Source: Nitratidesulfovibrio termitidis HI1
Lineage (GTDB): Bacteria > Desulfobacterota > Desulfovibrionia > Desulfovibrionales > Desulfovibrionaceae
Assembly: GCF_000504305.1 (NCBI RefSeq)
Contig: NZ_KI632512.1
Span: 2,613,469-2,677,468, forward strand
DNA: 64,000 nt
Direction of reading: 5' to 3'
This document shows positions 3,415 to 57,892 of the stretch, in pieces. The position numbers were made by a program, and so were the translations under genes. The notes under the pieces were generated by a model that saw only the letters and a program-made list of their open reading frames with translations, did not search any database and was not told where the DNA came from. How positions within the stretch are numbered: the first letter of the stretch is position 1; each line of letters starts with the position of its first letter.

Positions 3415-4656
3415 TTAGAGCAATTCTCCCTCATCCACCCGCCAGCGGTCCGCCCAGTCCGGCAGGGCCGTGAAGGATTCGCCGTCAGGCAGGGTCAGCC
3501 GCACGGCGTGCAGCAGCATGCCCTGACCGCAGGCGGGGCCGCCGTACTTGCGGTCACCCATGATGGGATGGCCGCGTTCCGCAAGCTGCACCCGGATCTG
3601 ATGGGTGCGGCCGGTGTGCAGGCGAACCAGCAGCAGCGATGCCGCATCGCCGCGCCGCAGGGGGGTTACGGTGCAGGCAGCGTGGCGGCCCAGGTCATTA
3701 CGAGACGCCGCGTGATCCGCGTCATTACGAGACGCCGCGTGATCCGCGTCTTGGCCGGATGCCGCGCGGAGCGCATCTCCACCGGCGGGTGCCGCAGCCC
3801 CCCCGCCCATCCGGCTCACCCGGCGCACCTTCTGACGGCCCGGGGCGCCCTGCTTCTCCAACTGATCGTGCAGGGTCAGTTCCCCCTCGTGGGCCCAGCG
3901 CCCCGCCACCCAGGCCAGATATTCCTTCACCAGCCCCTCCCGTGCCGCAAAGGCGTCGGACAGCGCCCGCAGCCGGGCATAGCTGGTGGCCACCAGCAGC
4001 AGGCCCGAGGTGTCGCGGTCCAGCCGGTGCGCGGGCGTGGGCAGAAAGTCCGCCCCGGCGTACTGCGCGGCAAGTCGGGCGGTGACGCAATCCGTATGGC
4101 CGGTGCCCGGCTGCACCGCAAGCCCTGCAGGCTTCAGCAGCACCAGCAGCCCTTCGGCGCGGCCCACGACGGGCAAGGGCGATGCCAGAATTTCCGGGCG
4201 CGAGGAGTATCCCCGTTCCAGGCTGTTGACGACGTCTGATTTTTGGACGCCTCCGGCGGCCAAGGGGCTGCCGCCCCTTGGAGCCCCATGCCTTGCATTC
4301 GCGCAATGCGCAGGGGACACGGATAAACATTTTGGGGCGAAGGGCCCCCCCCCTCGAAAGAATTCGGACTCGTCCGCAGGCTGGCGGGGGGCGGAGCCCC
4401 GCTCCTTTGCCCCGCCCGCATCTGCCGACGTATCCAGCATCGCACCCTCTCCGCCCGCCATGGCAAAGGGCGGCACGCGCACCACGTCACCCTCGGCCAC
4501 GCGATCAAAGGGCTTGCAGCGCCCCCCGTTGATGCGCACCTGCCCGGTGCGCACCCAGCGCTGGATGGCCGACTGCGGCGCGCCGCAGCGCCGTTGCAGG
4601 TACTGCACCAGCTTCTGTCCGGCCTCTGCGGCGGTGACCACGAGTGGTTCTGCCAT
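3415..4656 (-). CDS. RluA/RluD-family 23S rRNA pseudouridine synthase with in-frame repeat insertion
   Basis: An S4-like RNA-binding domain comes first (TAAEAGQKLVQYLQRR to about residue 65). The catalytic domain has the HRLDRDTSG motif, whose Asp is the expected nucleophile, then the LHTGRTHQIRVQLAERGHPIMGD block typical of the RluA/RluC/RluD group. It should convert uridine to pseudouridine in structured RNA, probably 23S rRNA; the exact site cannot be read from sequence. The start MAEPL at 4656 begins just before the S4 domain. Two oddities lie inside: about 64 residues between the S4 and catalytic domains are encoded by a copy of a dispersed repeat (4214-4405), and a 27-bp exact tandem duplication (3694-3747) gives a repeated HAASRND segment. 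A run of nine identical bases at 4345-4353 in the insert could make the frame unstable. Confidence 0.85.
   Translation of the reverse strand: MAEPLVVTAAEAGQKLVQYLQRRCGAPQSAIQRWVRTGQVRINGGRCKPFDRVAEGDVVRVPPFAMAGGEGAMLDTSADAGGAKERGSAPRQPADESEFFRGGGPFAPKCLSVSPAHCANARHGAPRGGSPLAAGGVQKSDVVNSLERGYSSRPEILASPLPVVGRAEGLLVLLKPAGLAVQPGTGHTDCVTARLAAQYAGADFLPTPAHRLDRDTSGLLLVATSYARLRALSDAFAAREGLVKEYLAWVAGRWAHEGELTLHDQLEKQGAPGRQKVRRVSRMGGGAAAPAGGDALRAASGQDADHAASRNDADHAASRNDLGRHAACTVTPLRRGDAASLLLVRLHTGRTHQIRVQLAERGHPIMGDRKYGGPACGQGMLLHAVRLTLPDGESFTALPDWADRWRVDEGELL
3694..3747. repeat. 27-bp exact tandem duplication inside the pseudouridine synthase gene
   Basis: Two identical adjacent 27-base units (3694-3720 and 3721-3747), with a degenerate third start after them. 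The unit length is a multiple of three, so the reading frame is kept. Confidence 0.9.
4214..4405. repeat. Dispersed MITE-like repeat, copy A (inside a coding sequence)
   Basis: The left part (CGTTCCAGGCTGTTGAC, then the GGACGCCTCCGGCGGCCAAG block, then a GGGGCTGCCGCCCCTTGG hairpin) and the right part (GAATTCGGACTCGTCCGCAG) line up with the full copies at 53885 and 57598. The central long terminator hairpin of those copies is missing here and is replaced by a short segment with nine C (4345-4353). The copy is read through in frame by the pseudouridine synthase gene. Confidence 0.85.
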
Positions 4657-12541: not shown

Positions 12542-14872
12542 ATGACAGCGCCAGCGAACCAGCCCCTGCCCACCCCGCCCGCCATGCCCGAAGCCCTGCC
12601 CGACGTGGCCCTGAACCCCAACGCCAAGGTCGTGCTGGCCAAGCGGTACTACCGCAAGGGCCCCGACGGCACCCCGCAGGAAGACGCCCGCACGCTGTTC
12701 TGGCGCATTGCCGGGGCCATTGCCGCCGAGGAAGGCAAGTACAAGAAGTCGCCCTACAAGGCCGACGCGCTGGCCCGCGAATTCTACGACCTGATGACCG
12801 GCTGGAAATTCCTGCCCAACTCGCCCACCCTGATGAACGCCGGCACGGAGCTTGGCCAGCTTTCCGCCTGCTTCGTGCTGCCCGTGGGCGACTCCATCGA
12901 GGAAATCTTCGACGCCGTGAAGCACGCCGCCATGATCCACAAGTCCGGCGGCGGCACCGGCTTTTCCTTTTCGCGCCTGCGGCCCAAGGAGGCCCGCGTG
13001 GGCTCCACCGGCGGGGTGGCCTCCGGCCCGGTGTCCTTCCTGCGCATCTTCAACACCGCCACCGAGCAGATCAAGCAGGGCGGCACCCGGCGCGGGGCCA
13101 ACATGGGCATCCTGCGCATCGACCACCCGGACATCATCGAATTCATCCGCGCCAAAGAGCGCGACGGCGAATTCAACAACTTCAACCTGTCCGTGGGGCT
13201 GACCGAAGCCTTCATGAAGGCCGTGGAGGCCGACGAGGAATACGACCTTGTCGCCCCGCACTCCGGCCAGGTGCGCGAACGGCTGAAGGCCCGCAAGGTC
13301 TTCGAGATGCTGGTGCAGAAGGCCTGGGAAAGCGGCGACCCGGGCATCGTGTTCCTGGACCGTATCAACCGCGACAACCCCACCCCCAAGCAGGGCGAGA
13401 TCGAATCCACCAACCCCTGCGGCGAACAGCCGCTGCTGCCCTACGAGGCCTGCAACCTGGGGTCCATCAACCTTTCCGCGTTCTTCGTGCCCGGCACCCC
13501 CTCTGCCCCCACGGCGGCCACGGCCAAGGACGGCAGCCTGCCGCATCCCTCGCCGGAAAAGGCCGTCGACTGGGCGGAACTGAAGCGGGTCATCCACCTT
13601 GGCGTGCGCTTTCTGGACAACGTCATCGACGCCTCGCGCTTTCCGCTGGAGCGCATTACCGAAACCGTGCACCGCAACCGCAAGATCGGCCTTGGCGTCA
13701 TGGGCTGGGCCGACCTGCTGTACCAGTTGGGCATTCCCTACGACAGCCAGGAAGCCATCGGCCTTGGCGAACGCGTCATGCAGTTCGTGCTGGACGAGGG
13801 CCGCGCCGCCTCCAAGGTGCTGGCCAAGGAACGCGGGCCCTTCCCGGCCTATGCGGAATCGACCTTTGCCGAACGCGACATGGGCCCCTACCGCAACGCC
13901 ACGGTGACCACCATTGCGCCTACCGGCACCCTGTCCATCATTGCCGGGTGCTCGTCGGGCATCGAACCGCTGTTCGCGCTGTGCTTCTCGCGCAACGTCA
14001 TGGACGGCGAACGCCTGGTGGAGGTGAACCCCCACTTCGAGGCGGCCCTGCAGGACACCGGCAGCCACAGCAAGAAGCTGATGGAAGCCGTGGCCGAAAA
14101 GGGCACCATCCAAGCCATGGACCACCTGCCCGAAGACCTGCGCCGGGTATACGTGACCGCCATGGACATCGCCCCGGTGTGGCACCTGCGCATGCAGGCC
14201 GCCTTCCAGAAGTACACCGACAACGCCGTGTCCAAGACCGTGAACCTGCCCAACTCCGCCAGCATCGACGACATTCGCGCCATCTACTGGATGGCCTACG
14301 AGCAGGGCTGCAAGGGCGTCACCGTGTACCGCGACGGCTGCAAGTCCGTGCAGGTGCTGTGCACCGGCGAGGGCGAAAAGAAGGACGAGGGCAAGGACGA
14401 CGGCGACCACAAGAGCGCCGTGCGCCAGCGCCCGGACATCGTCTACGGCTTCACCCAGAAGGTGCCCACCGGCCTTGGGGCCATGTACCTGACCGTCAAC
14501 GAGGCCAACGGCAAGCCCTTCGAGGTGTTCGCCACCATCGGCAAGTCGGGCCGGTCCATCACCGCCAAGGCCGAGGCCATAGGCCGTCTGGTGTCGCTGG
14601 CCCTGCGCTCCGGCGTGGAAGTGCGCGACATCGTCCAGCAGCTCAAGGGCATTGGCGGCGAACACCCGGTGTTCCAGAAGAAGGGCCTCTTGCTGTCCAT
14701 CCCCGACGCCATCTCGTGGGTGCTGGAAAACCGCTACCTGAGGGGCGAACTGCCCCCCCACGGCCCGGTGAACGAACTGGACAAGCAGCGCTGCCCCGAT
14801 TGCGGCGAGGACCTGGTATTCCAGGAAGGCTGCTACATCTGCCCCGGCTGTGGCTTTACCAAGTGCGGGTAG
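12542..14872 (+). CDS. nrdJ: Adenosylcobalamin-dependent (class II) ribonucleotide reductase
   Basis: A 776-residue protein that reduces ribonucleotides to deoxyribonucleotides using a radical made from adenosylcobalamin. Seen in sequence: the N-terminal region (FLPNSPTLMNAG), the disulfide and substrate loops (QLSACFVLPV, HKSGGGTGFSFSRLRP), the active-site cluster NPCGEQPLLPYEACNLGSINL, and the PTGTLSIIAGCSSGIEP segment. A TSCPD-like region and a C-terminal zinc ribbon (CPDCG and CPGCG) that is typical of the vitamin B12 type close the protein. Between the NPCGEQ block and the next domain is a short Pro/Ala/Thr spacer. The start at 12542 (MTAPANQ) has no strong ribosome site. It is monocistronic and ends in a strong hairpin. 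Confidence 0.95.
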   Translation: MTAPANQPLPTPPAMPEALPDVALNPNAKVVLAKRYYRKGPDGTPQEDARTLFWRIAGAIAAEEGKYKKSPYKADALAREFYDLMTGWKFLPNSPTLMNAGTELGQLSACFVLPVGDSIEEIFDAVKHAAMIHKSGGGTGFSFSRLRPKEARVGSTGGVASGPVSFLRIFNTATEQIKQGGTRRGANMGILRIDHPDIIEFIRAKERDGEFNNFNLSVGLTEAFMKAVEADEEYDLVAPHSGQVRERLKARKVFEMLVQKAWESGDPGIVFLDRINRDNPTPKQGEIESTNPCGEQPLLPYEACNLGSINLSAFFVPGTPSAPTAATAKDGSLPHPSPEKAVDWAELKRVIHLGVRFLDNVIDASRFPLERITETVHRNRKIGLGVMGWADLLYQLGIPYDSQEAIGLGERVMQFVLDEGRAASKVLAKERGPFPAYAESTFAERDMGPYRNATVTTIAPTGTLSIIAGCSSGIEPLFALCFSRNVMDGERLVEVNPHFEAALQDTGSHSKKLMEAVAEKGTIQAMDHLPEDLRRVYVTAMDIAPVWHLRMQAAFQKYTDNAVSKTVNLPNSASIDDIRAIYWMAYEQGCKGVTVYRDGCKSVQVLCTGEGEKKDEGKDDGDHKSAVRQRPDIVYGFTQKVPTGLGAMYLTVNEANGKPFEVFATIGKSGRSITAKAEAIGRLVSLALRSGVEVRDIVQQLKGIGGEHPVFQKKGLLLSIPDAISWVLENRYLRGELPPHGPVNELDKQRCPDCGEDLVFQEGCYICPGCGFTKCG

Positions 14873-14892
14873 GAAAAATCAGGCAAGAATAA

Positions 14893-14932
14893 CCGGAGGA
14901 AGAAACCTTTTGGAAAAGGTTTCTTCCTCCGG
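14893..14932 (+). terminator. Terminator hairpin after nrdJ (core copy of the dispersed repeat)
   Basis: A perfect 19-bp stem (14893-14911 with 14914-14932) around GG. It is followed by CTCCATCTTCCAAAACTTTT, the same flank that follows the hairpins at 16845 and 21751, so it belongs to the dispersed repeat family. The repeat similarity extends to about 14965. Confidence 0.8.
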
Positions 14933-15057
14933 ACCTCCATCTTCCAAAACTTTTCATTTGGGCTCTCCCCCCATATTTTTCATCCGGTCACGCCCCACGC
15001 CTCTCCTGTCCCTTGCCCCTTGCAAAGTCGCGCGGGCTTTGCTTTGATGCGGCCAGC

Positions 15058-15917
<860 letters not shown>

Positions 15918-15918
<1 letters not shown>

Positions 15919-16811
15919 TGCGCACCTTCTTCCGCCTGCTGGGCCGTGGCGTGGCCGACCTGTTCCTGCACCCGTGGGCGCAACTGCTGTCCATGGCGGC
16001 GGTAACGCTGGTGGTCTTCCTGTCCGGACTGCTGCTGATGGCGCTGGCCACGGTGGACGCCGAACTCAGTGCCTCGCGCGGGGAAACGGTGTACCAGGTG
16101 TACTGGCGCCCCGGCACGGACATGACCCACGTGCGCGGCCAATGGGAAGAACTGCGCCACATGCCCTGGCTGGCCAGTCTGGAAACCTACAGCCCCGACG
16201 AAGCGCTGACGGCGCTGGCCCGCCGCATGGGCGAGACGGGTGGCCAGGCCACCGGGCTGGACATGGGTTTTCTGTCCGGCAAAAGCCCCTTGCCGCCTAC
16301 GGCCCTGCTGACCTTTGCCCCGCGCGAGGCCGACCCCGAAAAGTGGACCGCCGAAACCCAGGGTTTTCTCAAGGCCATGCCCGGCGTAGAGCGCGTGGCC
16401 GCATCGCCCCTGCGCGACGAACTGGGCAAGGCGTGGCGTTCGGCCAGCCGCTTCGTGATCTGGCCCACCGTGGGCTTTCTGGGCGTGGTGCTGGCGCTGG
16501 TGGTGGGCAACACCGTGCGGCTCACCCTGTCCACCCGACGGGAAGAAATCGAAATCCTGCAACTGGTGGGGGCGCGCAACGGGTACATCCGTCTGCCCCT
16601 GATGGTGGCCGGTGCGCTGCAAGGCCTGCTGGGCAGTGGCCTGGCCTGCCTGCTGCTGCTTGTTGTCCACTGGCGCTACCGCACCGCGCTCAACGTGCCG
16701 CCCCTGCTGCTGGAACTGCGCCTGCCCCCGCCGGAACAGGCCGCCCTGCTGCTGGCCGTGCCCGTGCTCATGGGCATTCTGGGCAGCTGGATTGCCGTCC
16801 GCAGCCGCTAG
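15918..16811 (+). CDS. ftsX: Cell division permease FtsX
   Basis: A 297-residue membrane protein with the FtsX layout: cytoplasmic N-terminus, TM1 (about 25-45, [19 protein letters not shown]), a periplasmic loop of about 120 residues ([18 protein letters not shown] onwards), then three TM segments (about 176-195, 225-250 and 270-292) with the [14 protein letters not shown] motif between TM2 and TM3. It is translationally coupled to ftsE by TGATG. It should pass ATP-driven conformational change from FtsE to cell-wall hydrolase partners. The downstream repeat provides a terminator. Confidence 0.92.
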
Positions 16812-16844
16812 GGGTACATGTTTTTCAGAACCCAAGGCACTTTC

Positions 16845-17135
16845 GGGGGAAGGGGAGAAGGCCCTTTTGGAAAAGGGCCTTCTCCCCTTCCCCCGGTCCC
16901 CCATCCCCTCATCCCCAAAACTTTTTATTTGGGTTTACGCCGTTCGTTCACAGCTGCCTCAAAATCTTCATCACCCCGCCAACACTTCATACTTTGACCA
17001 AATAAAAGTTTTGCGGGGTGGAGAGGGGGTGCGGGGGAGAGGAGGGGAGCTTTTCGCTATGCGATCGCCATCCGTAAGGTTCGCGCCAAGCGCTCACCTA
17101 ACGGCTGCCGTAAAAGCTCCCCTCCTCTCCCCCGC
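16845..17135. repeat. Mirrored pair of dispersed-repeat terminators between ftsX and ilvD
   Basis: Left unit: perfect 24-bp stem 16845-16868 with 16871-16894, then CCCCAAAACTTTTTATTTGGG. Right unit is its mirror: CCAAATAAAAGTTTTG (from 16999), then a stem 17031-17054 with 17112-17135 (24 bp, perfect) whose loop is filled by a 57-bp second element. Between them lie about 60 bases without gene. The left hairpin suits termination after ftsX; the right one sits in the ilvD leader. Confidence 0.85.
17055..17111. repeat. Nested ~57-bp mini-element in a hairpin loop
   Basis: It contains GCGATCGCCATCCGTAAGG and CACCTAACGGCTGCCGT, ends that form an imperfect inverted repeat. It lies exactly between the TTTT and AAAA at the apex of the 24-bp hairpin. 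Related copies: 24494-24550, 57642-57691 (reverse), 57761-57811 (reverse) and, more divergent, 56312-56359. Confidence 0.8.
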
Positions 17136-17172
17136 AAAAACAGCACTCTCGGCAAACAAGAGGACGCAGACA

Positions 17173-18840
17173 ATGCGCAGCAAGAAGATGACCCATGGAT
17201 TGGAGAAGGCCCCGCACCGTTCGCTGCTGCATGCCCTGGGGCTGACGCGCGAGGAAATCAAGCGCCCGCTGGTGGGCGTGGTGAACTCTGCCAACGAGGT
17301 GGTGCCCGGCCACGTGCATTTGCACACCATTGCCGAGGCGGTGAAGGCCGGGGTACGCGCGGCGGGCGGCACGCCCATGGAATTTCCGGCCATTGCGGTC
17401 TGTGATGGTTTGGCCATGAACCACGAGGGCATGCATTTTTCGCTGCCGTCGCGCGAGATCATTGCCGATTCCATCGAGATCATGGCCACGGCGCACCCCT
17501 TCGACGCGCTGGTGTTCATCCCCAACTGTGACAAGTCGGTGCCCGGCATGCTGATGGCCATGCTGCGGCTGGACATTCCGTCCATCATGGTCAGCGGCGG
17601 CCCCATGCTGGCGGGCGGCACCCTGGCGGGCCGCACCGACCTGATCAGCGTGTTCGAGGCCGTGGGCCGCGTGCAGCGCGGCGACATGACCATGGCCGAA
17701 CTGGACGAGATGACCGAAACGGCCTGCCCCGGCTGCGGTTCGTGCGCGGGCATGTTCACGGCCAACACCATGAACTGCATGGCCGAGACCATGGGCCTTG
17801 CCCTGCCCGGCAACGGCACCATCCCGGCGGTGACGGCGGCGCGCGTGCGTCTTGCCAAGCACGCGGGCATGAAGGTGATGGAACTGCTGGAAAAGAACAT
17901 CACCCCGCGCTCCATCGTCACCCCGCGCGCGGTGGCCAATGCCGTGGCCGTGGACATGGCCCTGGGCGGCTCCACCAACACGGTGCTGCACCTGCCCGCC
18001 GTGTTCGGCGAGGCCGGGCTGGACCTGACGCTGGACATCTTCGACGAGGTCAGCCGCAAGACCCCCAACCTGTGCAAGCTTTCCCCGGCCGGGCACCACC
18101 ACATCCAGGACCTGCACGCCGCAGGCGGCATCCCGGCGGTGATGGCGGAACTGACCAGGAAGGGGCTGGTGGATACCTCGGTCATGACCGTCACTGGCAA
18201 GACCCTGGCCGAAAACCTGGCCGAGCTGAACGCGCGCGTGCTCAATCAGGATGTAATACATTCCGTAGACGCTCCGTATTCGGCACAGGGCGGCATCGCC
18301 ATCCTGAAGGGTTCGCTGGCCCCGCAGGGCGCGGTGGTCAAGCAGTCTGCCGTGGCGCCGGAAATGATGGTGCGCGAAGCCGTGGCCCGAGTGTTCGATT
18401 CCGAGGGCGAAGCCCACGCCGCCATCATGGGCGGCAAGATCAGCAAAGGCGACGCCATCATTATCCGCTACGAAGGCCCGCGCGGCGGCCCCGGCATGCG
18501 CGAGATGCTGTCGCCCACCGCCGCCATTGCTGGCATGGGCCTGGGGGCGGACGTGGCGCTGATCACCGATGGCCGCTTCAGCGGCGGCACGCGTGGCGCG
18601 GCCATCGGGCACGTTTCGCCGGAGGCTGCCGACGGCGGCAACATCGGGCTGGTCAAGGAAGGCGACCGCATCCTCATCGACATTCCGGCCCGCAGGCTGG
18701 ACCTGCTGGTGGACGAGGCGGAACTGGCAGCCCGGCGCGAAACCTTTGTGCCGCTGGAAAAGCCGGTCACTTCGCCCCTGCTGCGCCGCTATGCCCGCCA
18801 GGTGACCAGCGCGGCCACCGGGGCCATGTTCCGCAAGTAG
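17173..18840 (+). CDS. ilvD: Dihydroxy-acid dehydratase
   Basis: A 555-residue enzyme of isoleucine and valine synthesis that dehydrates 2,3-dihydroxy-3-methyl acids to 2-oxo acids. The three cysteines expected to hold the Fe-S cluster are seen in NCDKSVPGM and [19 protein letters not shown]. The [19 protein letters not shown] and [10 protein letters not shown] motifs are intact. The ATG at 17173 has GAGG 10 bases upstream. The leader contains a mirrored terminator repeat that ends 37 bases before the start, which could reduce or gate transcription from upstream. It is followed by a strong terminator, so it is monocistronic. Confidence 0.95.
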
Positions 18841-18875
18841 CCCGCAGAAACGCCCGCACTCCGCTGCATTCATTG

Positions 18876-18912
18876 ACGGCCCGTCGCACCATCCGGTGCG
18901 GCGGGCCGTTTT
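18876..18912 (+). terminator. Intrinsic terminator of ilvD
   Basis: A perfect 15-bp stem (18876-18890 with 18895-18909) with loop ATCC, followed by TTTT. Confidence 0.85.
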
Positions 18913-18955
18913 GCATGGCGGCAGTGTGTGGGCTGCAAAATTCCTGTTCTCGCGC

Positions 18956-18997
18956 TTGACACTCCATCACTATATCAGTATTTGCTGATTTAGTGAT
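18956..18997 (+). promoter_or_regulatory. Promoter and palindromic operator upstream of the metE leader
   Basis: TTGACA at 18956-18961 is a good -35 box. A 12-of-13 inverted repeat (ATCACTATATCAG at 18966-18978 and CTGATTTAGTGAT at 18985-18997) follows, and its 6-bp centre TATTTG falls 17 bases after the -35 box, where the -10 box is expected. A repressor bound here would block the promoter. In Desulfovibrio the ArsR-family regulator SahR is known to control methionine-cycle genes including metE; that this is its site is inference. Confidence 0.6.
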
Positions 18998-19034
18998 GTT
19001 ATCATCCCCGAGCAACGCAGACCGCTGCATGCTC

Positions 19035-19285
19035 GAACGTGGAAGGGAAACGGAAACCGGTGCGAATCCGGTACAGGCGCGCTGCCGTGTTCGGGCATGC
19101 CGCCCGCGTCCACCGCTACCGCCATCCGGCGATCCCCTGCCCGCACGGGCAACGGGGCTGTCGGAGCGGCTCGGCGGGAAGGGCGCGGGCCACGGCTTTG
19201 GACCACGCGATGCCCCTCGCAAGGGCGTTCGCGTGGGTACGAAGCCTTTCACCCACCGCCCGTCAGTCGGAAGACGTCCCCTCCG
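19035..19285 (+). promoter_or_regulatory. Cobalamin riboswitch in the metE leader
   Basis: The core AGGGAAACGGAAACCGGTGC followed by GAATCCGGTACAGGCGCGC matches the conserved central part of cobalamin riboswitches. The 3' B12-box-like segment GTCAGTCGGAAGACG follows at 19262-19276. It should bind adenosylcobalamin and shut off metE, which makes the B12-independent methionine synthase, when B12 is available. The exact ends are approximate. Confidence 0.85.
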
Positions 19286-19396
19286 CACCGCCCAAGGCCG
19301 CGCGAACCGGACCCCGGCATGCGCCCGCCCGCTGCATTGCGGCGCGGCGCGCTCGCGAATCGCACTCACCTGTCTTCACGCATTCCGGAGGTGGCA

Positions 19397-21727
19397 ATGC
19401 GTACCCACACCCTTGGTTTTCCGCGCATCGGCGGCAACCGTGAACTGAAAAAGGCCGTCGAGGACTACTGGAAAGGCGCCGTCACGCGGCAGCAACTGGA
19501 GGACGCCGCGCGCGCCATCCGCCTGCGCAACTGGACCCTCCAGCGCAAGGCGGGCATCGACGTGGTGCCCGTGGGCGACTTCGCCCTGTACGACCACATC
19601 CTGGACGCTGCCCTGCTGCTTGGCGTGGTGCCCCCGCGCTTCCGCAACGGCGACGCCCCCCGCGACATCGACCTGATGTTCCGCATGGCGCGCGGCCAGG
19701 GCGGCGACCACCCCGTGGCCCCGCTGGAAATGACCAAGTGGTTCGACACCAACTACCATTACCTGGTCCCGGAACTGGACGCGGCTACCACCTTCGCGCC
19801 AGAGGCCGCCCCCCTGCTGGCCCAGATCGACGAGGCGCTGGCGGCTGGCTTCACCCCCAAGGCGGTGCTGCCCGGCCCCATGACCTTTCTGTGGTTGTCC
19901 AAACGCGTGGACGGCGGCACCCGCTGGTCGCTGCTGCCCGCCCTGCTCGACGCCTACGGCGCGCTGCTGCGCGATGTGGCCGCCCGCTGCCCGTTGATCC
20001 AGCTGGATGAACCCATCCTGTCGCTGGATCTGGCCGACGACATCCGCTCGCGCTTCGTGCCCGCCTATGCCCGACTGCGCGTGGCCGTGCCGGACGCCAC
20101 CCTGCTGCTGGCCAGTTACTTCGCTCCGGTGGGCGACAACCTGGCAACGGCACTGTCCCTCCCTGTGGACGTGCTGCACCTGGACCTGGTGCGCGGGCCG
20201 GAAGATCTGGCCCCGGCACTGGACATCCTGACCCGCGCGCCCCAGAAACAGACGGGCGACCCGGCGTTGCCGCAATCCGGCATTGCGCTTTCCCTGGGGG
20301 TCATCAATGGCCGCAATGTCTGGCGCGTGGACGCGGACAAGGCCGCCGCGCCGGTGCGTGACGCCGTGGCCGCCCTTGGTCCGGACCGGGTGTGGGTGGC
20401 CCCGTCCTGTTCGCTGCTGCACAGCCCCGTGGACCTTGATGCCGAAACCGGGCTGGACCCGGAAGTGGCGCAGTGGCTGGCCTTTGCCAGACAGAAGTGC
20501 GCCGAGGTGCGTCTGGTGGCCGACATGTGCGACCTGAATGGCCGCGCCGACGCGCCGGAAACCGCCGCCGCCCTTGCCCGCAACCGGGCCGCGCTGGCCG
20601 CGCGCGCCGCAAGCCCGGTCATCCACGACCCCGCCGTTGCGGTCCGCGTTGGCACCGTCACCCCGGAAATGGGCTGGCGCGCCACGCCCTACACCGCCCG
20701 CATCACCTCCCAGCGCGCCGCGTTGCGCCTGCCCGTGCTGCCCACCACCACCATCGGCTCGTTCCCCCAGACCGCCGACATCCGCGCCCAGCGCCGCAAG
20801 CTGCGCACCGGCCAGATCACCGAGGCCCAGTATGACGCCGCCATGCGCGAGGCCATCGCCACCGCCATCCGCGAGCAGGAGGCCCTTGGGCTGGACGTGC
20901 TGGTGCACGGCGAGCCGGAGCGCAATGACATGGTCGAATACTTCGGCGAGCAGTTGCGCGGGTTCTGCATCACCGCCAACGGCTGGGTGCAGAGTTACGG
21001 CACCCGCTGCGTCAAACCGCCCCTGCTCTACGGCGACGTCTCGCGTCCCGGCCCCATGACCGTACGCTGGATCACCCATGCCCAGTCGCTTACCGACAAG
21101 CCGGTCAAGGGCATGCTCACCGGCCCGGTCACCATCGCCTGCTGGAGTTTTGTCCGTGATGACGTGCCCCGGCCCGTTGTCTTCCGCCAACTCGCTCTCG
21201 CCATCCGCGACGAGGTGGCCGACCTCGAGTCCGCCGGCATCGGCGTCATCCAGATCGACGAACCCGCCCTGCGCGAGGGGCTGCCCCTGCGCCGCGCCGC
21301 CCACGCCGCCTACCTGGACGCCGCCGTGGGCGCGTTCCGCCTGGCCTCGTCCGGCGTGCAGGACGCCACCCAGATCCATACCCACATGTGCTACTGCGAC
21401 TTCCACGACATCATCGACCACGTGGCCGCCCTGGACGCCGACGTCATCAGCCTGGAAGCCAGCCGCAGCCGCATGGAACTGCTGGATATCTTTGCCACCC
21501 ACGCCTACCTCAACGAGGTCGGCCCCGGCGTGTACGACATCCACAGCCCGCGCGTGCCCTCCATCGACGAAATGGAAACCCTGCTCCGCGCCGCCACCCG
21601 CGTCCTGCCCCTGGACCGCCTGTGGGCCAACCCCGACTGCGGCCTGAAAACTCGCGACTGGCCCGAAACCCGCGCCAGCCTCGCCCACCTCGTGGCCGCC
21701 GCCGCACGGGTGCGTGACGGGGTGTAG
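19397..21727 (+). CDS. metE: Cobalamin-independent methionine synthase
   Basis: A 776-residue enzyme that transfers a methyl group from 5-methyltetrahydropteroyl-triglutamate to homocysteine. The N-terminal domain begins RTHTLGFPRIGGNRELKKA, and the C-terminal barrel has LPTTTIGSFPQT, GEPERNDMVEYF, and the zinc ligands of QIHTHMCYCDF and NPDCGLKTR. The start has a strong GGAGG site (CGGAGGTGGCAATG). It is preceded by a cobalamin riboswitch and by a palindrome over the promoter, so it probably answers both to B12 supply and to the methionine cycle. It is followed by the mirrored terminator repeat. Confidence 0.95.
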   Translation: MRTHTLGFPRIGGNRELKKAVEDYWKGAVTRQQLEDAARAIRLRNWTLQRKAGIDVVPVGDFALYDHILDAALLLGVVPPRFRNGDAPRDIDLMFRMARGQGGDHPVAPLEMTKWFDTNYHYLVPELDAATTFAPEAAPLLAQIDEALAAGFTPKAVLPGPMTFLWLSKRVDGGTRWSLLPALLDAYGALLRDVAARCPLIQLDEPILSLDLADDIRSRFVPAYARLRVAVPDATLLLASYFAPVGDNLATALSLPVDVLHLDLVRGPEDLAPALDILTRAPQKQTGDPALPQSGIALSLGVINGRNVWRVDADKAAAPVRDAVAALGPDRVWVAPSCSLLHSPVDLDAETGLDPEVAQWLAFARQKCAEVRLVADMCDLNGRADAPETAAALARNRAALAARAASPVIHDPAVAVRVGTVTPEMGWRATPYTARITSQRAALRLPVLPTTTIGSFPQTADIRAQRRKLRTGQITEAQYDAAMREAIATAIREQEALGLDVLVHGEPERNDMVEYFGEQLRGFCITANGWVQSYGTRCVKPPLLYGDVSRPGPMTVRWITHAQSLTDKPVKGMLTGPVTIACWSFVRDDVPRPVVFRQLALAIRDEVADLESAGIGVIQIDEPALREGLPLRRAAHAAYLDAAVGAFRLASSGVQDATQIHTHMCYCDFHDIIDHVAALDADVISLEASRSRMELLDIFATHAYLNEVGPGVYDIHSPRVPSIDEMETLLRAATRVLPLDRLWANPDCGLKTRDWPETRASLAHLVAAAARVRDGV

Positions 21728-21750
21728 CGAATAGAATAATTCAAGACCAA

Positions 21751-21950
21751 CCGGGGGAAGGAACCTTTTGAAAAAGGTTCCTTCCCCCGGACCCCCTACC
21801 TCCCAAACTTTTTAATTGGGGCGGGATACGCATTGCGGATAAGTCTTGCGAAATCCCATGGAGTCCCCAATTGAAACGTTTTGTGGGAAGGGGTGGGGGT
21901 CCGGGGGCGGGGAAACCCACTTTTGGAAAAGTGGGTTTCCCCGCCCCCGG
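21751..21950. repeat. Mirrored pair of dispersed-repeat terminators between metE and a methyltransferase gene
   Basis: Left unit: 19-bp stem 21751-21769 with 21772-21790, then CCCAAACTTTTTAATTGGGG. Right unit, in mirror orientation: CCCCAATTGAAACGTTTTG (21865), then a perfect 24-bp stem 21901-21924 with 21927-21950. About 45 bases separate them. No gene lies in the 327-base gap. Confidence 0.85.
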
Positions 21951-22054
21951 TTCTTTCTTCCTCTCCTCCTTCCTGTAGCTCCACACCCTTTTCGCGCGGG
22001 GGGTCTTGGCGTATGCTGCGCCCAAACCGGATGCCGGAGACAATGGGGAGGCGC

Positions 22055-22861
22055 ATGAATCAGCGGTGGGACGCGGACACGGTGCGGGGCTACATGCAGT
22101 GGCTGGAGACGCCCAAGGGGGCGTTTGCGGTACGGCACGAGCAGCGGCTGCTGCACCACATGGTGTCTGGCTGGCCCCGGCGCGGGCACACCCTGCTGGA
22201 GGTGGGCTGCGGCCCGGGGGTGTTTCTGGAATCGTTCTGGGAGGCGGGGTTCGACGTCACGGGGCTGGACAGCAGCGAGGCCATGCTGGAGGCCGCGCGC
22301 GAGCGCATGAACTGCCGGGCGGACTTTCACCTGGGCGTGGCGGACCACCTGCCATTCGACGACGATGCGTTCGATTATGTGGCCCTGCTGACCAGCCTGG
22401 AGTTCATGCCCGACCCTGCGGCGGCGCTGGCCGAAGCGTTCCGGGTGGCCTCGCGCGGGGTGCTGGTGGGCTTTCTGAACCGGGTATCGCCCTACTACCC
22501 CACCCATGGCCTGCCGGTGCCGGGGCTGCGCGGCTCCTTGCTGCGGCAGGCGCACTGGTTCAGCATCCCTTCCATGTATGCGCTGGTGCGCGGCACGGGG
22601 GTGTCCTCCTCCATCACCATGCGCTCGGTGCTGCACGGACCGGCCTGCACCTGGCGCGAATCGCGCCTGTTCGAGATGCTGAACGGCTGGATCAGCCTTT
22701 GGCCGTTCGGCGCGTACGTGGCCATGCGCATGGACTTTGGCCCCCGCATGCCGGTCACCCCGCTGGTGCTGCGCACGGGCAAGGCCGCCGTGTCACGCAT
22801 GGCGCCCGGTCGCCAGACAGCAACGGACGGGTTTTCCTGCCGCGACAAGCACGGGGAATAG
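22055..22861 (+). CDS. Class I SAM-dependent methyltransferase
   Basis: A 268-residue protein with the Rossmann SAM-binding motif LEVGCGPGVFLESF (about 48-60), the acidic motif II DVTGLDSSEAML, and motif LPFDDDAFDYVALLTSLEFM typical of the UbiE/Methyltransf_11 group. The substrate cannot be told from sequence. The ATG at 22055 has GGGGAGG upstream; an in-frame ATG at 22031 is less well placed. The gene stands alone between a terminator repeat and hisS. The C-terminal 100 residues have a basic, hydrophobic character that may contact a membrane or lipid substrate, which is inference. Confidence 0.78.
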   Translation: MNQRWDADTVRGYMQWLETPKGAFAVRHEQRLLHHMVSGWPRRGHTLLEVGCGPGVFLESFWEAGFDVTGLDSSEAMLEAARERMNCRADFHLGVADHLPFDDDAFDYVALLTSLEFMPDPAAALAEAFRVASRGVLVGFLNRVSPYYPTHGLPVPGLRGSLLRQAHWFSIPSMYALVRGTGVSSSITMRSVLHGPACTWRESRLFEMLNGWISLWPFGAYVAMRMDFGPRMPVTPLVLRTGKAAVSRMAPGRQTATDGFSCRDKHGE

Positions 22862-23122
22862 CCGGGCGCGGTTACGGCCCCGCGCAGACTCATCCCTGGC
22901 TCTCCCGCCAGGATTTTCCCGTGTCATATCGCGTGGCCGGTACCGCCGCGCGGCACACTATCCGCGCCCGCCAGCGGCATCCTACCCCAGCCCCGCGCAT
23001 GATATTCTACGATTTTGACAATACCCGCCCATTGGACTATCCATGGCTGTTTCCGCACCGGCGGGGTGCGGCGTGCCGTGCGCATGCCCCCTGCCGCGCA
23101 AGCCTGCATCCGGAAGCGAGCC

Positions 23123-24418
23123 ATGAGCACCAACAATTCCGACAAGACCGCCGCCGACAAGACCACGCAAAAGGTTACGGGCGACAAGGTGGGCACCATC
23201 AAGGGGTTCGCCGACATGTTCAGCCCCGACAGCGACGTGTTCACCTTCATGGAGAACACCGCGCGCGAGGTGTTTGGCCGTTACGGCTACACCGAGCTGC
23301 GCACCCCGCTGCTGGAGCGCACCGAACTGTTCTGCCGCTCCATCGGCACCGAGACCGACGTGGTGCAGAAGGAAATGTACACCTTCCCCGACCGCAAGGG
23401 CCGTTCGCTGACCCTGCGCCCGGAAGCCACGGCGGGCGTCATGCGCGCCTTCATCGATGCGGGCCGCCACGCGCAGGAGCCGGTCTCCAAGCTGTTCACC
23501 ACCGGCCCCATGTTCCGCTACGAGCGCCCGCAAAAGGGCCGCATGCGCCAGTTCCACCAGATCAACTGCGAATGCCTTGGCCCGCAGGAGCCGCAGGCCG
23601 ACGCCGAGCTGGTGCTGATGCTCATGACCTTTCTGCGCGCGCTCGGGCTGACCGACCTTTCGTTGCAGGTGAACTCGCTGGGTTGCCGCGAATGCCGCCC
23701 GGTGTACCGGGCCGCGCTGCGCGACTTTCTGGAGTCCATCGACCGCGAAGCCCTGTGCGAGGACTGCCGCCGCCGCATCGACACCAACCCGCTGCGGGTG
23801 CTGGACTGCAAGGTGCCCACCTGCCGCGAGCTGACCGCCGACGCTCCGCGCATCATCGACCACAACTGCCCGGAATGCCGCACCCACTTCGACACGGTGC
23901 TGCGCGTGTTCGACGCCGCGCAACTGGACTACGTGCTCACCCCGCGCCTGGTGCGCGGGCTGGACTATTACAACCGCACCACCTTCGAGGTGGTTTCCGG
24001 CTCCATCGGCGCGCAATCGTCGGTGGCGGGCGGCGGGCGGTATGACGGCCTGGTGGCCCAACTGGGCGGCCCGGACGTGCCCGGCGTGGGCTTTGCCTGC
24101 GGCATGGAACGCCTGGCCCTGATGCTGCCCGCGCTGGAGAAGAAGCGGCCCGATTTCTACATTGCCGTACTGGACCCGGCTGCCGCGGACGCGGCCATGC
24201 TGCTGGCGCAGGAACTGCGCGCAGCGGGCAAGGCGGGCGAGGTGTCCTTTGCCGCACGCGGCATCAAGGGCCAGATGCGCCAGGCCGGTCGCACCGGTGC
24301 GCGCAAGGCCCTGCTGCTGGGCGGCGACGAGATGACCAACGGCACCGTGGTCATCAAGGACATGGACAGCGGCGAGCAGTGCAGCGTGCCGCAGGGTGAT
24401 GCCGTGAACCACGTCTAG
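23123..24418 (+). CDS. hisS: Histidyl-tRNA synthetase
   Basis: A 431-residue class II synthetase. Motif 1 lies around YGYTELRTPLLERTELF, motif 2 around GPMFRYERPQKGRMRQFHQ, the histidine motifs are LVRGLDYYNRTTFEV and the SVAGGGRYDGL block, and motif 3 is GVGFACGMERLAL. The C-terminal anticodon-binding domain (from about 335) is complete. It charges tRNA(His). The start ATG 23123 leaves a 25-residue charged N-terminal extension before IKGFADMF, a bit longer than usual. aspS follows on the same strand but a hairpin repeat lies between. Confidence 0.95.
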   Translation: MSTNNSDKTAADKTTQKVTGDKVGTIKGFADMFSPDSDVFTFMENTAREVFGRYGYTELRTPLLERTELFCRSIGTETDVVQKEMYTFPDRKGRSLTLRPEATAGVMRAFIDAGRHAQEPVSKLFTTGPMFRYERPQKGRMRQFHQINCECLGPQEPQADAELVLMLMTFLRALGLTDLSLQVNSLGCRECRPVYRAALRDFLESIDREALCEDCRRRIDTNPLRVLDCKVPTCRELTADAPRIIDHNCPECRTHFDTVLRVFDAAQLDYVLTPRLVRGLDYYNRTTFEVVSGSIGAQSSVAGGGRYDGLVAQLGGPDVPGVGFACGMERLALMLPALEKKRPDFYIAVLDPAAADAAMLLAQELRAAGKAGEVSFAARGIKGQMRQAGRTGARKALLLGGDEMTNGTVVIKDMDSGEQCSVPQGDAVNHV

Positions 24419-24474
24419 CGAGGGTGCCGACCGCATTTGTCGCTACCCTTTTGAAAAGTTTGGGGGGGAGGGGT

Positions 24475-24568
24475 CCGGTGAGGGAGACCCTTTCCGCGTT
24501 GCGGTCGCCATCCGTAAGGTTCGCGCAAGCGCTCACCTAACGGCTGCCGCAAAGGGTCCCCTCACCGG
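24475..24568. repeat. Dispersed-repeat terminator after hisS with nested mini-element
   Basis: The flank AAAAGTTTGGGGGGGAGGGG (24454) and a stem 24475-24493 with 24551-24568 (one bulge) match the right-hand units at 17031 and 21901. The loop is filled by a 57-bp mini-element. Confidence 0.8.
24494..24550. repeat. Nested ~57-bp mini-element in a hairpin loop
   Basis: Same length and nearly the same sequence as 17055-17111 (TCGCCATCCGTAAGGTTCGC and CTCACCTAACGGCTGCCG). It sits again exactly at the hairpin apex. Confidence 0.8.
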
Positions 24569-24637
24569 TACTCTTCCTACCCCGTTTCCGTCCCTTTCCG
24601 ACTTGTCATCCTCGGGAAACATCCAAAGGAACCGTTC

Positions 24638-26497
24638 ATGAGCGATCAGAAACTTGACGTCCAACAGGAACACCAGCAGTACATCGAACCCCTGGGCGAC
24701 TGGGTGCGCAGCCACGATTGCTGCACGCTGACCGCCGCCGACACCGGGGCCGAAGTCTGCCTGATGGGCTGGGTGCAGTACCGCCGCGACCACGGCGGCC
24801 TCATTTTCGTGGACCTGCGCGACCGCCAGGGCCTTACCCAGATCGTGTTCAGCCCCGACGTCAATCCCGCCGCGCATGAGCGCGCGCACGTCATCCGCTC
24901 TGAATACGTGCTGGCCATTCGCGGCACCGTGCGTCCCCGGCCCGAGGGCATGACCAACCCCGGCATGAAGACCGGCGAGATCGAGGTGTACGTTTCCGAA
25001 TGGAAGCTGCTGAACACCTCCAAGACGCCCGCCTTCGTCATCGAGGACCGCACCGAGGCCAGCGAAAACCTGCGCCTGCAGTACCGCTACCTCGACCTGC
25101 GCCGCCCGCGCATGGCCAACAACTTCATCGTGCGCCACAAGGCCGCGCAGGCCACCCGCCGCTACCTGGACGAGCTGGGCTTTCTGGAAATCGAAACGCC
25201 CTACCTCACCAAGTCCACGCCGGAAGGCGCACGCGACTTCCTGGTGCCCAGCCGCCTGAACCAGGGTCAGTTCTACGCCCTGCCGCAGTCGCCCCAGTTG
25301 TTCAAACAGCTGCTGATGATGTCCGGCATGGAGCGCTACTACCAGATCGTGCGCTGCTTCCGCGACGAGGATATGCGCGCCGACCGCCAGCTGGAGTTCA
25401 CCCAGATCGATATCGAGATGAGCTTCGTGGACGAGGAACAGGTGATGGCCATGGCCGAAGGCCTGATGGCCCGCGTGTTCCGCGACGCGCTGGACCGCGA
25501 GGTCGCCACCCCCTTCCCGCGCATGAGCTATGACGACGCCATGGCCCGCTACGGCGTGGACAAGCCGGACACCCGCTTCGGGCTGGAGTTGCAGGACGTG
25601 ACGCACATTGTGCGCGGTTCCAACTTCAAGCTGTTCGCCACGGCGGAACTGGTCAAGGCCATGCGCGTGCCCGGCGGCGAAACCATGACCCGCAAGGAAA
25701 TCGACGAATTCACCGAGTTCGTGAAGATCTACGGCGCGCAGGGTCTGGCCTGGATCAAGATCCGCCCCGAGGAATGGCAGTCGCCCATCGCCAAGTTCCT
25801 GTCCGACCAGGAACGCGCCGGGCTGAAGGAAGCCCTTGGCCTTGAAACCGGCGACATCGTGTTCTTCCAGGCGGGCGCGCCGGGCATGGTCAACGCCGCG
25901 CTGGGCAACCTGCGCGTGCGCCTTGGCGAGCATCTGGGCCTCATCGACGAGAACGCCTTCAACTTCCTGTGGGTTACCGACTTCCCGCTGTTCGAATATG
26001 ACGAGGAAGAAAAGCGCTACGTGGCCTGCCACCATCCGTTCACCTCGCCCAAGGACGGCCACATGGACGTCATGGTCGAGAACCCGGCGGCGGCCCGCGC
26101 CCGCGCCTACGACATGGTGCTGAACGGCTACGAACTTGGCGGCGGCTCCATCCGCAACCACACTGCGGAAAAGCAGCGCCGCATGTTCGCGGCTCTCGGC
26201 TTCTCGCCGGAAGACGCGGAAGCGCAGTTCGGCTTCCTGAACCAGGCGCTGGAAATGGGCGCACCGCCGCACGGCGGCATCGCCTTCGGCATGGACCGTC
26301 TGGCCATGCTGCTGACCGGCTCTTCGTCCATCCGCGACGTCATCGCCTTCCCCAAGACGCAGAAGGCCACTTGCCTGCTTACCCAGGCCCCGGACACCGT
26401 GTCCGCCCGCCAGCTGCGCGACCTGGGCCTGCGCCTGCGCGAGACGGGCAAGGAAGCCGCCAAGGACGCGACCCCCACGGACGCCGCGCAAGGCTAG
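24638..26497 (+). CDS. aspS: Aspartyl-tRNA synthetase
   Basis: A 619-residue bacterial-type AspRS. The N-terminal OB-fold anticodon domain (CLMGWVQYRRDHGGLIFVDLRD) is followed by class II motif 1, the QSPQLFKQLLM loop, motif 2 (RCFRDEDMRADRQLEFTQID), the GAD insertion (about 280-420) and motif 3 (GGIAFGMDRLAMLLTG). It attaches Asp to tRNA(Asp); whether it also charges tRNA(Asn) cannot be decided here. The ATG at 24638 has AAAGGA upstream. A short extension after TGKEAAKD ends the protein. It has its own terminator. Confidence 0.96.
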   Translation: MSDQKLDVQQEHQQYIEPLGDWVRSHDCCTLTAADTGAEVCLMGWVQYRRDHGGLIFVDLRDRQGLTQIVFSPDVNPAAHERAHVIRSEYVLAIRGTVRPRPEGMTNPGMKTGEIEVYVSEWKLLNTSKTPAFVIEDRTEASENLRLQYRYLDLRRPRMANNFIVRHKAAQATRRYLDELGFLEIETPYLTKSTPEGARDFLVPSRLNQGQFYALPQSPQLFKQLLMMSGMERYYQIVRCFRDEDMRADRQLEFTQIDIEMSFVDEEQVMAMAEGLMARVFRDALDREVATPFPRMSYDDAMARYGVDKPDTRFGLELQDVTHIVRGSNFKLFATAELVKAMRVPGGETMTRKEIDEFTEFVKIYGAQGLAWIKIRPEEWQSPIAKFLSDQERAGLKEALGLETGDIVFFQAGAPGMVNAALGNLRVRLGEHLGLIDENAFNFLWVTDFPLFEYDEEEKRYVACHHPFTSPKDGHMDVMVENPAAARARAYDMVLNGYELGGGSIRNHTAEKQRRMFAALGFSPEDAEAQFGFLNQALEMGAPPHGGIAFGMDRLAMLLTGSSSIRDVIAFPKTQKATCLLTQAPDTVSARQLRDLGLRLRETGKEAAKDATPTDAAQG

Positions 26498-37066: not shown

Positions 37067-37390
37067 GATGGCGTCCTGTGATGGTGTTGCGTGGGCTGGC
37101 GCGGCACACGCCTGATACGGGGCGGTCGCGCTCACCGTAAGAAGAAGGTGGTGACGGCGTGACGACAGGGCGAGAGTAGCGAAAGACGGCCACAAGGGAA
37201 AGGCGGTTTGGCCTGCGGCGTCACCGCATACCGAACCGCCCTGCCCTTACCTGGTCTGGCCTGCTCTGGCCTGCTCTGGCCTGCTCTGGCCATATCTGGC
37301 CTGCTCTGGCCTGCTCTGGCCATATCTGGCCTGCGGAAACCTGCTCCTGACGCCGTCCATGCCAATGGCGCAGACGAACGCGCGGCATGC
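37067..37390. other. Intergenic region with a 10-bp tandem array
   Basis: Between the epimerase start and the end of the SPFH gene. Besides the array at 37251-37330 nothing is seen. Confidence 0.5.
37251..37330. repeat. Tandem array of 10-bp units (CTGCTCTGGC type)
   Basis: Eight consecutive 10-base units ending in TCTGGC. The first four bases vary as CTGG, CTGC, CTGC, CTGC, CATA, CTGC, CTGC, CATA, which shows a higher-order pattern made by unequal duplication. Confidence 0.92.
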
Positions 37391-53884: not shown

Positions 53885-54128
53885 CGAAGGGGCGGAAACG
53901 CCCCCTTCCAGGTTGTTGACAAAGTCTGCTTTTTGGACGCCTCCGGCGGCCAAGGGGCTACCGCCTCTTGGAACCCCGCATTTTGTGTTTCCGTAATGCC
54001 TCGAGAACACAAATAAAAGTTTTGGGGGGAGGGGGTCCGGGGGAGGAGACCCTTTTCCAAAAGGGTCCCTCCCCCGGAAGAATTTGGGTTTGTCAGCAGC
54101 CTGGAAGGGGGCGGAAACGCCCCCTTCG
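53885..54128. repeat. Dispersed MITE-like repeat, copy B (full length)
   Basis: About 39-bp terminal inverted repeats: the left end 53885-53923 and the right end 54089-54128 share CGCCCCCTTCCAGG-TG-TGACAAA with few differences. Inside are GGACGCCTCCGGCGGCCAAG, then AATAAAAGTTTTGGGGGG, and a long hairpin 54037-54056 with 54059-54077 (one bulge). No coding sequence. It lies between convergent genes (the cyclase and an ABC ATPase) and can serve as terminator for both. The 390-base gap holds nothing else. Confidence 0.9.
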
Positions 54129-57574: not shown

Positions 57575-57595
57575 ACCACCCGAATAGCGGGTGGT
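57575..57595 (+). terminator. Short hairpin after ybaK
   Basis: ACCACCCG (57575-57582) pairs perfectly with CGGGTGGT (57588-57595). There is no T-run after it, so on its own it is a weak terminator. Confidence 0.35.
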
Positions 57596-57641
57596 CATGT
57601 TGTTGACAAAGCCTGCTTTTGTACGCCTCTGGCGGCCAAGG

Positions 57642-57691
57642 ACGGCAGCCGTTAGGCGCGCTTGTGAGCCTTACGGATGGCGATCGCAACG
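57642..57691. repeat. Nested mini-element, reverse orientation
   Basis: On the minus strand it reads GCGTTGCGATCGCCATCCGT and CGCGCCTAACGGCTGCCGT, which matches the elements at 17055 and 24494. It interrupts the GCCAAGG/GGCTGCCGCC block of copy C. Confidence 0.8.
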
Positions 57692-57760
57692 CGGCTGCCG
57701 CCCCTTGGAACCCTGTATTTTCGTAATGCACAGAAAGCACAAATAAAAGTTTTTGGGGGA

Positions 57761-57811
57761 GCCTCAGCCGTTATGCGAGTCTTCGAGTATTACGGATGAG
57801 GACAGCAGCGC
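57761..57811. repeat. Second nested mini-element in copy C, divergent
   Basis: Its centre CCGTTATGCGAGTCTTCGAG then TATTACGG is a hairpin, and it keeps the CATCCGTAA and TAACGGCTG ends of the family on the minus strand. Confidence 0.6.
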
Positions 57812-57892
57812 GGGGGTCCGGGGGAGGAGACCCTTTTCCAAAAGGGTCCCTCCCCCGGAAGATTTTGGGTTTGTCAGCAGCCTCACCCACCC

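What the first reader, a model, noticed from the sequence alone, without database searches (positions are those of the whole stretch)
53885..54128. MITE-like dispersed repeat family that carries transcription terminators
Copy B has about 39-bp terminal inverted repeats (CGCCCCCTTCCAGG-TG-TGACAAA core), no coding sequence and a long GC-rich hairpin in the middle. Copy C (57598-57883) has the same blocks in the same order, and copy A lies inside a gene. Core units with the same hairpin and AAAACTTTTTATTTGGG flank follow nrdJ, ftsX, metE and hisS. Every copy except A sits at a gene 3' end. The family may be a non-autonomous mobile element that has been kept because it ends transcription. I know of no named family with this structure.
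Basis: partly seen in the sequence, partly recalled or inferred. Interest (0 to 1): 0.7.

Follow-up and report, generated by a model that had tools for sequence, protein, structure and literature searches.

The report
Mobile element that duplicates transcription terminators
A short non-coding mobile DNA element in a sulphate-reducing bacterium lands at the foot of transcription-terminator hairpins and leaves a full copy of the hairpin on each side, and full-length relatives with a transposase gene do the same in distant bacteria, which suggests that they choose their target by DNA shape.

Summary
The finding is real, but its edges and family were misread. The element is 195 bp (53909-54103). 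The outer part of the '39-bp inverted repeat' is host DNA: a 23-24 bp terminator-like hairpin present on both sides. Joined-flank searches for ten own-genome copies found orthologous sites with one hairpin and no element for six (B, c2, c4, c8, c9, c10); four gave no clean answer; copy A, tested apart, is empty in one relative. Of 24 copies in the genus, 14 carry the same whole hairpin on both sides. IS1182-family insertion sequences of other genera have matching ends and the same habit (10 of 15 copies). Of 65 testable relatives in a capped list of 80, 45 have a long flanking repeat, and all 45 are centred hairpins of 16-33 bp (control 24 of 9000). Best reading: a MITE moved by an IS1182-type transposase that attacks the foot of a terminator hairpin, so that duplication length equals hairpin length. 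IS1272 (IS1182 family) was reported to enter such hairpins but to replace or partly delete them; whole-hairpin duplication was drawn only as a possible pathway (Wan et al. 2017). The solo 'core units' look like host terminators, not copies of the element.

The parts
53909..54103 (+). Copy B of the element, 195 bp, ends CAGGTTGTTGACAAAG and GGGTTTGTCAGCAGCCTG
53886..53908 (+). Left copy of the duplicated target hairpin of B (23 bp)
   Evidence: one hairpin and no element at the orthologous site of G004, G001 and G002
54104..54127 (+). Right copy of the duplicated target hairpin of B (24 bp)
   Evidence: same orthologous sites
57596..57884 (+). Copy C of the element, 289 bp, with two nested ~50-bp repeats
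   Evidence: site also filled in G004 and G006
57575..57595 (+). Hairpin abutting the left end of C (ACCACCCGAATAGCGGGTGGT); no matching copy on the right
4219..4383 (+). Copy A, decayed, inside a minus-strand open reading frame of 492 aa; a hairpin (GCGGGGGGCGGAGCCCCGC) abuts the right end
   Evidence: G007 has one hairpin and no element there
24495..24550 (+). Second, unrelated ~50-57 bp repeat in the loop of a host terminator hairpin (not part of the element, but the same kind of repeat is nested in copy C)
   Evidence: filled in G002, unfilled in G007, G003 and G001

Best explanation
A, B and C are copies of a ~195-bp MITE family mobilised in trans by an IS1182-family DDE transposase. The target is the palindrome of an intrinsic terminator, probably extruded as a cruciform. 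The element ends are joined at the foot of the hairpin on opposite strands, and gap repair leaves the complete hairpin on both sides, so the target duplication is as long as the hairpin. Shown by sequence: mobility (empty sites), a single-hairpin target, whole-hairpin duplication, ends shared with IS1182-family elements, and the same habit in a wide clade. Inferred: that a transposase of this clade moved the MITE (none with these ends was found in the eight genus genomes), that the DNA is cruciform when attacked, and the strand polarity. Near-neutral landing in terminators, rather than use as a terminator, is my reading of why copies persist.
For: Same whole hairpin on both sides in 14 of 24 genus copies, 19-32 bp, different at each site; a hairpin abuts the left end in 21 of 24, against 199 of 6200 random positions. 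Orthologous sites with one hairpin and no element for B, c2, c4, c8, c9, c10 and A. IS1182-family elements in other genera have the same ends; in 10 of 15 copies the same hairpin of 21-40 bp stands on both sides. In 45 of 65 testable relatives a long flanking repeat exists and all 45 are centred hairpins of 16-33 bp; control 24 of 9000. 31 of 44 right copies are followed by a T-tract and 41 of 44 have a T-tract after or an A-tract before; random T-tracts 712 of 8800. Elements with the same DDE domain but other ends show short repeats and no hairpin copies.
Against: No autonomous partner in the eight genus genomes. 10 of 24 genus copies, 5 of 15 family IS copies and 20 of 65 wide relatives lack the same hairpin on both sides; some stand between two different hairpins, which I ascribe to recombination or decay without proof, and L028, L066, L096 and L283 show no abutting hairpin. 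In L063, L080 and L211 the loop of one hairpin copy is inverted relative to the other, which simple duplication does not give. No biochemical evidence for a cruciform. Four of ten joined-flank sites (c3, c5, C, c11) gave no clean empty site.
Confidence: 0.85

Rival explanations
1. The family is kept because it ends transcription: copies persist as useful terminators at gene 3' ends, and the solo cores are part of the same family.
For: A terminator-like hairpin lies inside the element, and the core resembles host terminators.
Against: Relatives without the element already have a terminator hairpin at the site; solo cores lack the ends and several stand at the same place in relatives; outside the genus, listed matches cover only the core. 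No measurement of termination.
Confidence: 0.1
2. The flanking hairpins are not a duplication: two terminators already stood there, or the hairpin travels with the element as its outer terminal repeat.
For: In copy B the hairpin extends the inverted repeat of the element (pair I12).
Against: The hairpin differs from site to site and matches the single hairpin of the empty orthologous site.
Confidence: 0.03
3. The transposase has a long fixed stagger and a preference for palindromic sequence in ordinary double-stranded DNA, with no cruciform.
For: Palindrome preference of some IS1182 members is on record (quoted in PMC4923244, passages); many duplications cluster around 20-30 bp.
Against: Lengths run from 16 to 40 bp and repeats are centred on the hairpin; no strong shared sequence in the arms beyond an A start and T end.
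Confidence: 0.2

Closest known systems
IS1182 family, in particular IS1272 / TnSha1
   Same: IS1272 is placed in the IS1182 family; it inserts into stem-loops, often terminators, without a primary sequence consensus (PMC4923244, passages; PMC5678879, abstract and sections 22 and 29 part 1). Direct repeats of 2-60 bp are reported for the family (PMC7335449, passage).
   Different: IS1272 and TnSha1 replace or partly delete the hairpin and make no target duplication; here the whole hairpin is duplicated, which Wan et al. drew as a possible pathway b. The element here has no transposase.
Bacterial MITEs in general (reviewed in PMC10969869)
   Same: Short, non-coding, inverted ends, target duplication, dispersed copies.
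   Different: Target is a terminator hairpin and the duplication is that hairpin, 19-32 bp, not a short fixed length.
SPRITE, BOX and RUP repeats of pneumococcus
   Same: Small repeats, SPRITE terminator-like, nesting in one another (PMC10969869, passages).
   Different: No relationship was tested; ends and target differ from what is described here.

Membership tests
MITE | Short, no transposase gene, dispersed copies in one genome | tested here: met
   194-195 bp base form; twelve places in the own genome with one or both ends; no open frame of its own was examined further
MITE | Terminal inverted repeats shared with an autonomous element | tested here: met
   MITE c2 right end and the G118 IS end both read CAGACTGCTGACAAACCC
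MITE | Target-site duplication and empty sites | tested here: met
   14 of 24 copies with the same hairpin on both sides; empty sites
MITE | Mobilised by the parent transposase in trans | not testable with these tools
   needs a transposition assay; no parent found in the eight genus genomes
IS1182 family (autonomous relatives) | IS1182-type transposase | tested here: met
   NF033551 at 457.7 and 463.3 bits, cut-off 270; PF05598 and PF13751
IS1182 family (autonomous relatives) | Palindromic target | tested here: met
IS1272-type hairpin replacement | Hairpin lost or partly deleted, no target duplication | tested here: not met
   hairpin present on both sides in 45 of 65 wide relatives and 10 of 15 family copies
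Known RNA family (Rfam) | Match above a gathering score | tested here: not met
   0 matches in the window

The most novel reading that the evidence does not exclude
A clade of IS1182-type transposases, from Bacillota to Desulfovibrionaceae, chooses its target by DNA shape: it attacks the feet of an extruded terminator cruciform, which turns a long palindrome into a short-stagger target, so the duplication is exactly one hairpin. The replacement reported for IS1272 would be the other diagonal of the same junction. This would explain the 2-60 bp direct repeats listed for the family and make insertions nearly harmless, because one terminator with its T-tract is left behind.
Probability: 0.6. Interest if true: 0.75.

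Novelty: new variant of a known kind. Interest (0 to 1): 0.62.

Why it matters
For DDE transposases the length of the target duplication is usually set by the protein (general knowledge). Here it follows a feature of the target, which gives a testable case of structure-directed integration and a natural record of which palindromes may extrude in cells. It offers an account of the very variable direct repeats reported for the IS1182 family and natural examples of a pathway that I found drawn only as a possibility. It also warns annotators that a duplicated palindromic target can pass for a long terminal inverted repeat, as happened here.

Tried and rejected
Parent search in the genus: PF13751 gave one hit, in G001, without matching ends; PF01609 gave four hits, of which L112-L114 were checked for end pairs without success and the fourth is the G001 hit again. 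An IS1202-type parent was considered at first (recalled) and dropped when the IS1182 match appeared. Copy B against plasmid records: no match. Rfam at gathering thresholds: none. Triplex literature (PMC4666352, passages) was looked at because of the G-rich core and not followed. PF01797 as mover of the nested ~50-bp repeat: no match in the own genome.

Literature: nine searches. Seen: listings; passages of PMC4923244, PMC10969869, PMC3281130, PMC12056078, PMC4666352 and PMC7335449; of PMC5678879 the abstract, section 22 and the first of two parts of section 29. ISfinder, TnPedia and the Siguier 2015 review could not be read, so whole-hairpin duplication may be noted there; I claim only that these nine searches did not show it as an observation.

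Rows dropped: one search listed 31 rows. Five had 7 or more end mismatches (L006 1285-1974, L044, L091, L095, L008), one was a chance pairing (L001 1525-2018) and one a 92-bp piece (L108), leaving 24; the control of 6200 used all 31 rows. Two of the 24 are likely shared insertions (L098 with C, L087 with c8). Sixteen of 24 score a hairpin on both sides; L071 (two different hairpins) and L098 (weak right one) were not counted, leaving 14. In one search, 15 of 80 loci had too short flanks. In one search one of 45 was dropped because its two copies are not identical. Control groups: five groups, 20 loci; G109 runs into contig ends and is uninformative.

Full report
What is there. Copy B is a 195-bp element at 53909-54103 flanked by two direct copies of a hairpin, 53886-53908 and 54104-54127. 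The own genome (4.26 Mb, one contig) gave 60 matches to copy B, a lower bound because 40 of 116 first-look candidates were scored. Twelve places carry one or both element ends; many of the other matches cover only the inner terminator-like core.

Target duplication. From own-genome and same-genus loci I kept 24 of 31 rows (dropped rows are named in Tried and rejected). A hairpin abuts the left end in 21 of 24 and the right end in 16 of 24; 14 of 24 have the same hairpin on both sides. The same test at random positions succeeds in 199 of 6200. The 14 duplications are 19-32 bp and differ from site to site, for example ACGCCGGACACGAAAGTGCCCGGCGTT at c4, where a T-tract follows the right copy. In L064 and L086 the loops of the two copies differ, and in L063 and L080 one loop looks like the reverse complement of the other; this is unexplained.

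Empty sites. Joined flanks of ten own-genome copies were searched in the eight genus genomes and the orthologous stretches aligned. Matches run through the site with one hairpin and no element for B (G004, G001, G002; 73-77% identity), c2 (G006, G002, G007, G004), c4 (G006, G007, G004, G003, G005), c8 (clearest in G001 and G007) and c10 (G005). For c9 a single hairpin is seen in G007 and G006, but the right flank aligns poorly. The other four gave no clean answer: c3 (no conserved hairpin), c5 (nested repeats in the hairpin of two relatives, a diverged one in a third), C (filled in G004 and G006, another hairpin elsewhere) and c11 (one flank only). Site c8 is filled in G006, where both ends are present (L087); the own copy c8 has lost its right part. 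Copy A, tested apart, is absent from G007, which has one hairpin there; G004 has other sequence.

The likely mover. In the eight genus genomes PF13751 and PF01609 searches gave no transposase with these ends. In the family, PF13751 matches 29 of 149 genomes. Copies in G015, G118 and one in G140 have matching ends; 12 of the 15 copies examined are 1571-1573 bp long. One G118 end, CAGACTGCTGACAAACCC, equals the right end of MITE c2. Ten of 15 have the same hairpin of 21-40 bp on both sides; the other five are L196, L200, L205, L208 and L209. The left hairpins of L200 and L205 are reverse complements of each other, as recombination between two copies would give. The transposase is IS1182 family by NCBIfam (457.7 and 463.3 bits, cut-off 270); the G140 frame is split.

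Generality. A two-sequence profile was scanned over genome contigs with two peptide patterns; 232 relatives were confirmed and the best 80 returned. Sixty-five have at least 150 bp on both sides; 45 of these have a flanking direct repeat of score 15 or more, and all 45 repeats are hairpins centred within 1 nt, 16-33 bp long. Random pieces of the same loci do as well in 24 of 9000. They come from Bacillota, Proteobacteria, Lentisphaera and others (record titles). Of the 20 without such a repeat, 16 have a recognisable pair of ends and 4 (L224, L258, L261, L275) do not. By eye, L217, L218, L219, L256, L257, L260 and L269 stand between two different hairpins; in Dechloromonas denitrificans L256, L257 and L260 three hairpins each occur twice in exchanged order, as recombination or misassembly would leave. 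In L211 the two hairpins are reverse complements of each other. L283 shows no hairpin. After the right copy, 31 of 44 have a T-tract; 35 of 44 have an A-tract before the left copy; 41 of 44 have at least one; random T-tracts 712 of 8800.

Control elements. Five groups of elements with a PF13751 match but other ends (20 loci) were compared by eye. Four groups are informative and show short flanking repeats such as TATTA, CGCTT, ACTTC or GAAGT, without hairpin copies; G109 runs into contig ends. Their family by NCBIfam was not tested.

Mechanism. If the two 3' ends are joined to opposite strands at the feet of an extruded hairpin, repair leaves the hairpin on both sides. Wan et al. drew this as pathway b while reporting replacement for IS1272 (PMC5678879, section 29 part 1 and section 22). 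Furi et al. saw insertion into terminator hairpins with partial deletion (PMC4923244, passages). The spread of lengths and the centring on the hairpin argue for a target defined by structure; cruciform extrusion, strand polarity and the transposase that moved this MITE remain inferred.

Solo cores. In a 10.2-kb stretch (window 14600-24800) four places with solo core terminators were compared with relatives. The 21753/21909 pair is at the same place in several relatives; at the other places the terminator is conserved in some and replaced or missing in others. They lack the element ends. In a family search of 149 genomes the genus members match along the element, and the six other genomes listed match only its core, positions 106-173 (5 candidates scored per genome, E at most 1e-12).

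Upkeep. At c4 the insertion separates the left hairpin from the T-tract and leaves the right copy with it. That fits a near-neutral landing site; selection for termination was not tested.

Noticed in passing
window 24495-24550, about 17030-17140, and inside copy C; L290-L319: A second repeat family of ~50-57 bp (51 matches in the own genome) that in many copies sits in the loop of a terminator hairpin. At 24446 and 16853 relatives hold the same terminator with an intact short loop, so it too seems mobile and aimed at terminator loops. No PF01797 transposase in the own genome.
   Followed up: partly
window 4219-4383: Copy A lies within a 492-aa minus-strand open frame that looks like an RluA-type pseudouridine synthase (motif recalled, no family search); the insertion appears to be read through in frame.
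   Followed up: partly
L063, L080, L211: The loop of one flanking hairpin is the reverse complement of the other, as if one palindrome had been inverted.
   Followed up: no
L256, L257, L260 (Dechloromonas denitrificans): Three IS copies whose flanking hairpins are exchanged in a ring, each hairpin occurring twice.
   Followed up: no
window 37230-37349: Tandem 10-bp repeats (CCTGCTCTGG and variants).
   Followed up: no
L114 (G005:C411): Contig of a 75%-complete genus genome whose frames repeat PRERGSS / VPARAGVI, which looks like a CRISPR array (recalled); it may be a contaminant.
   Followed up: no
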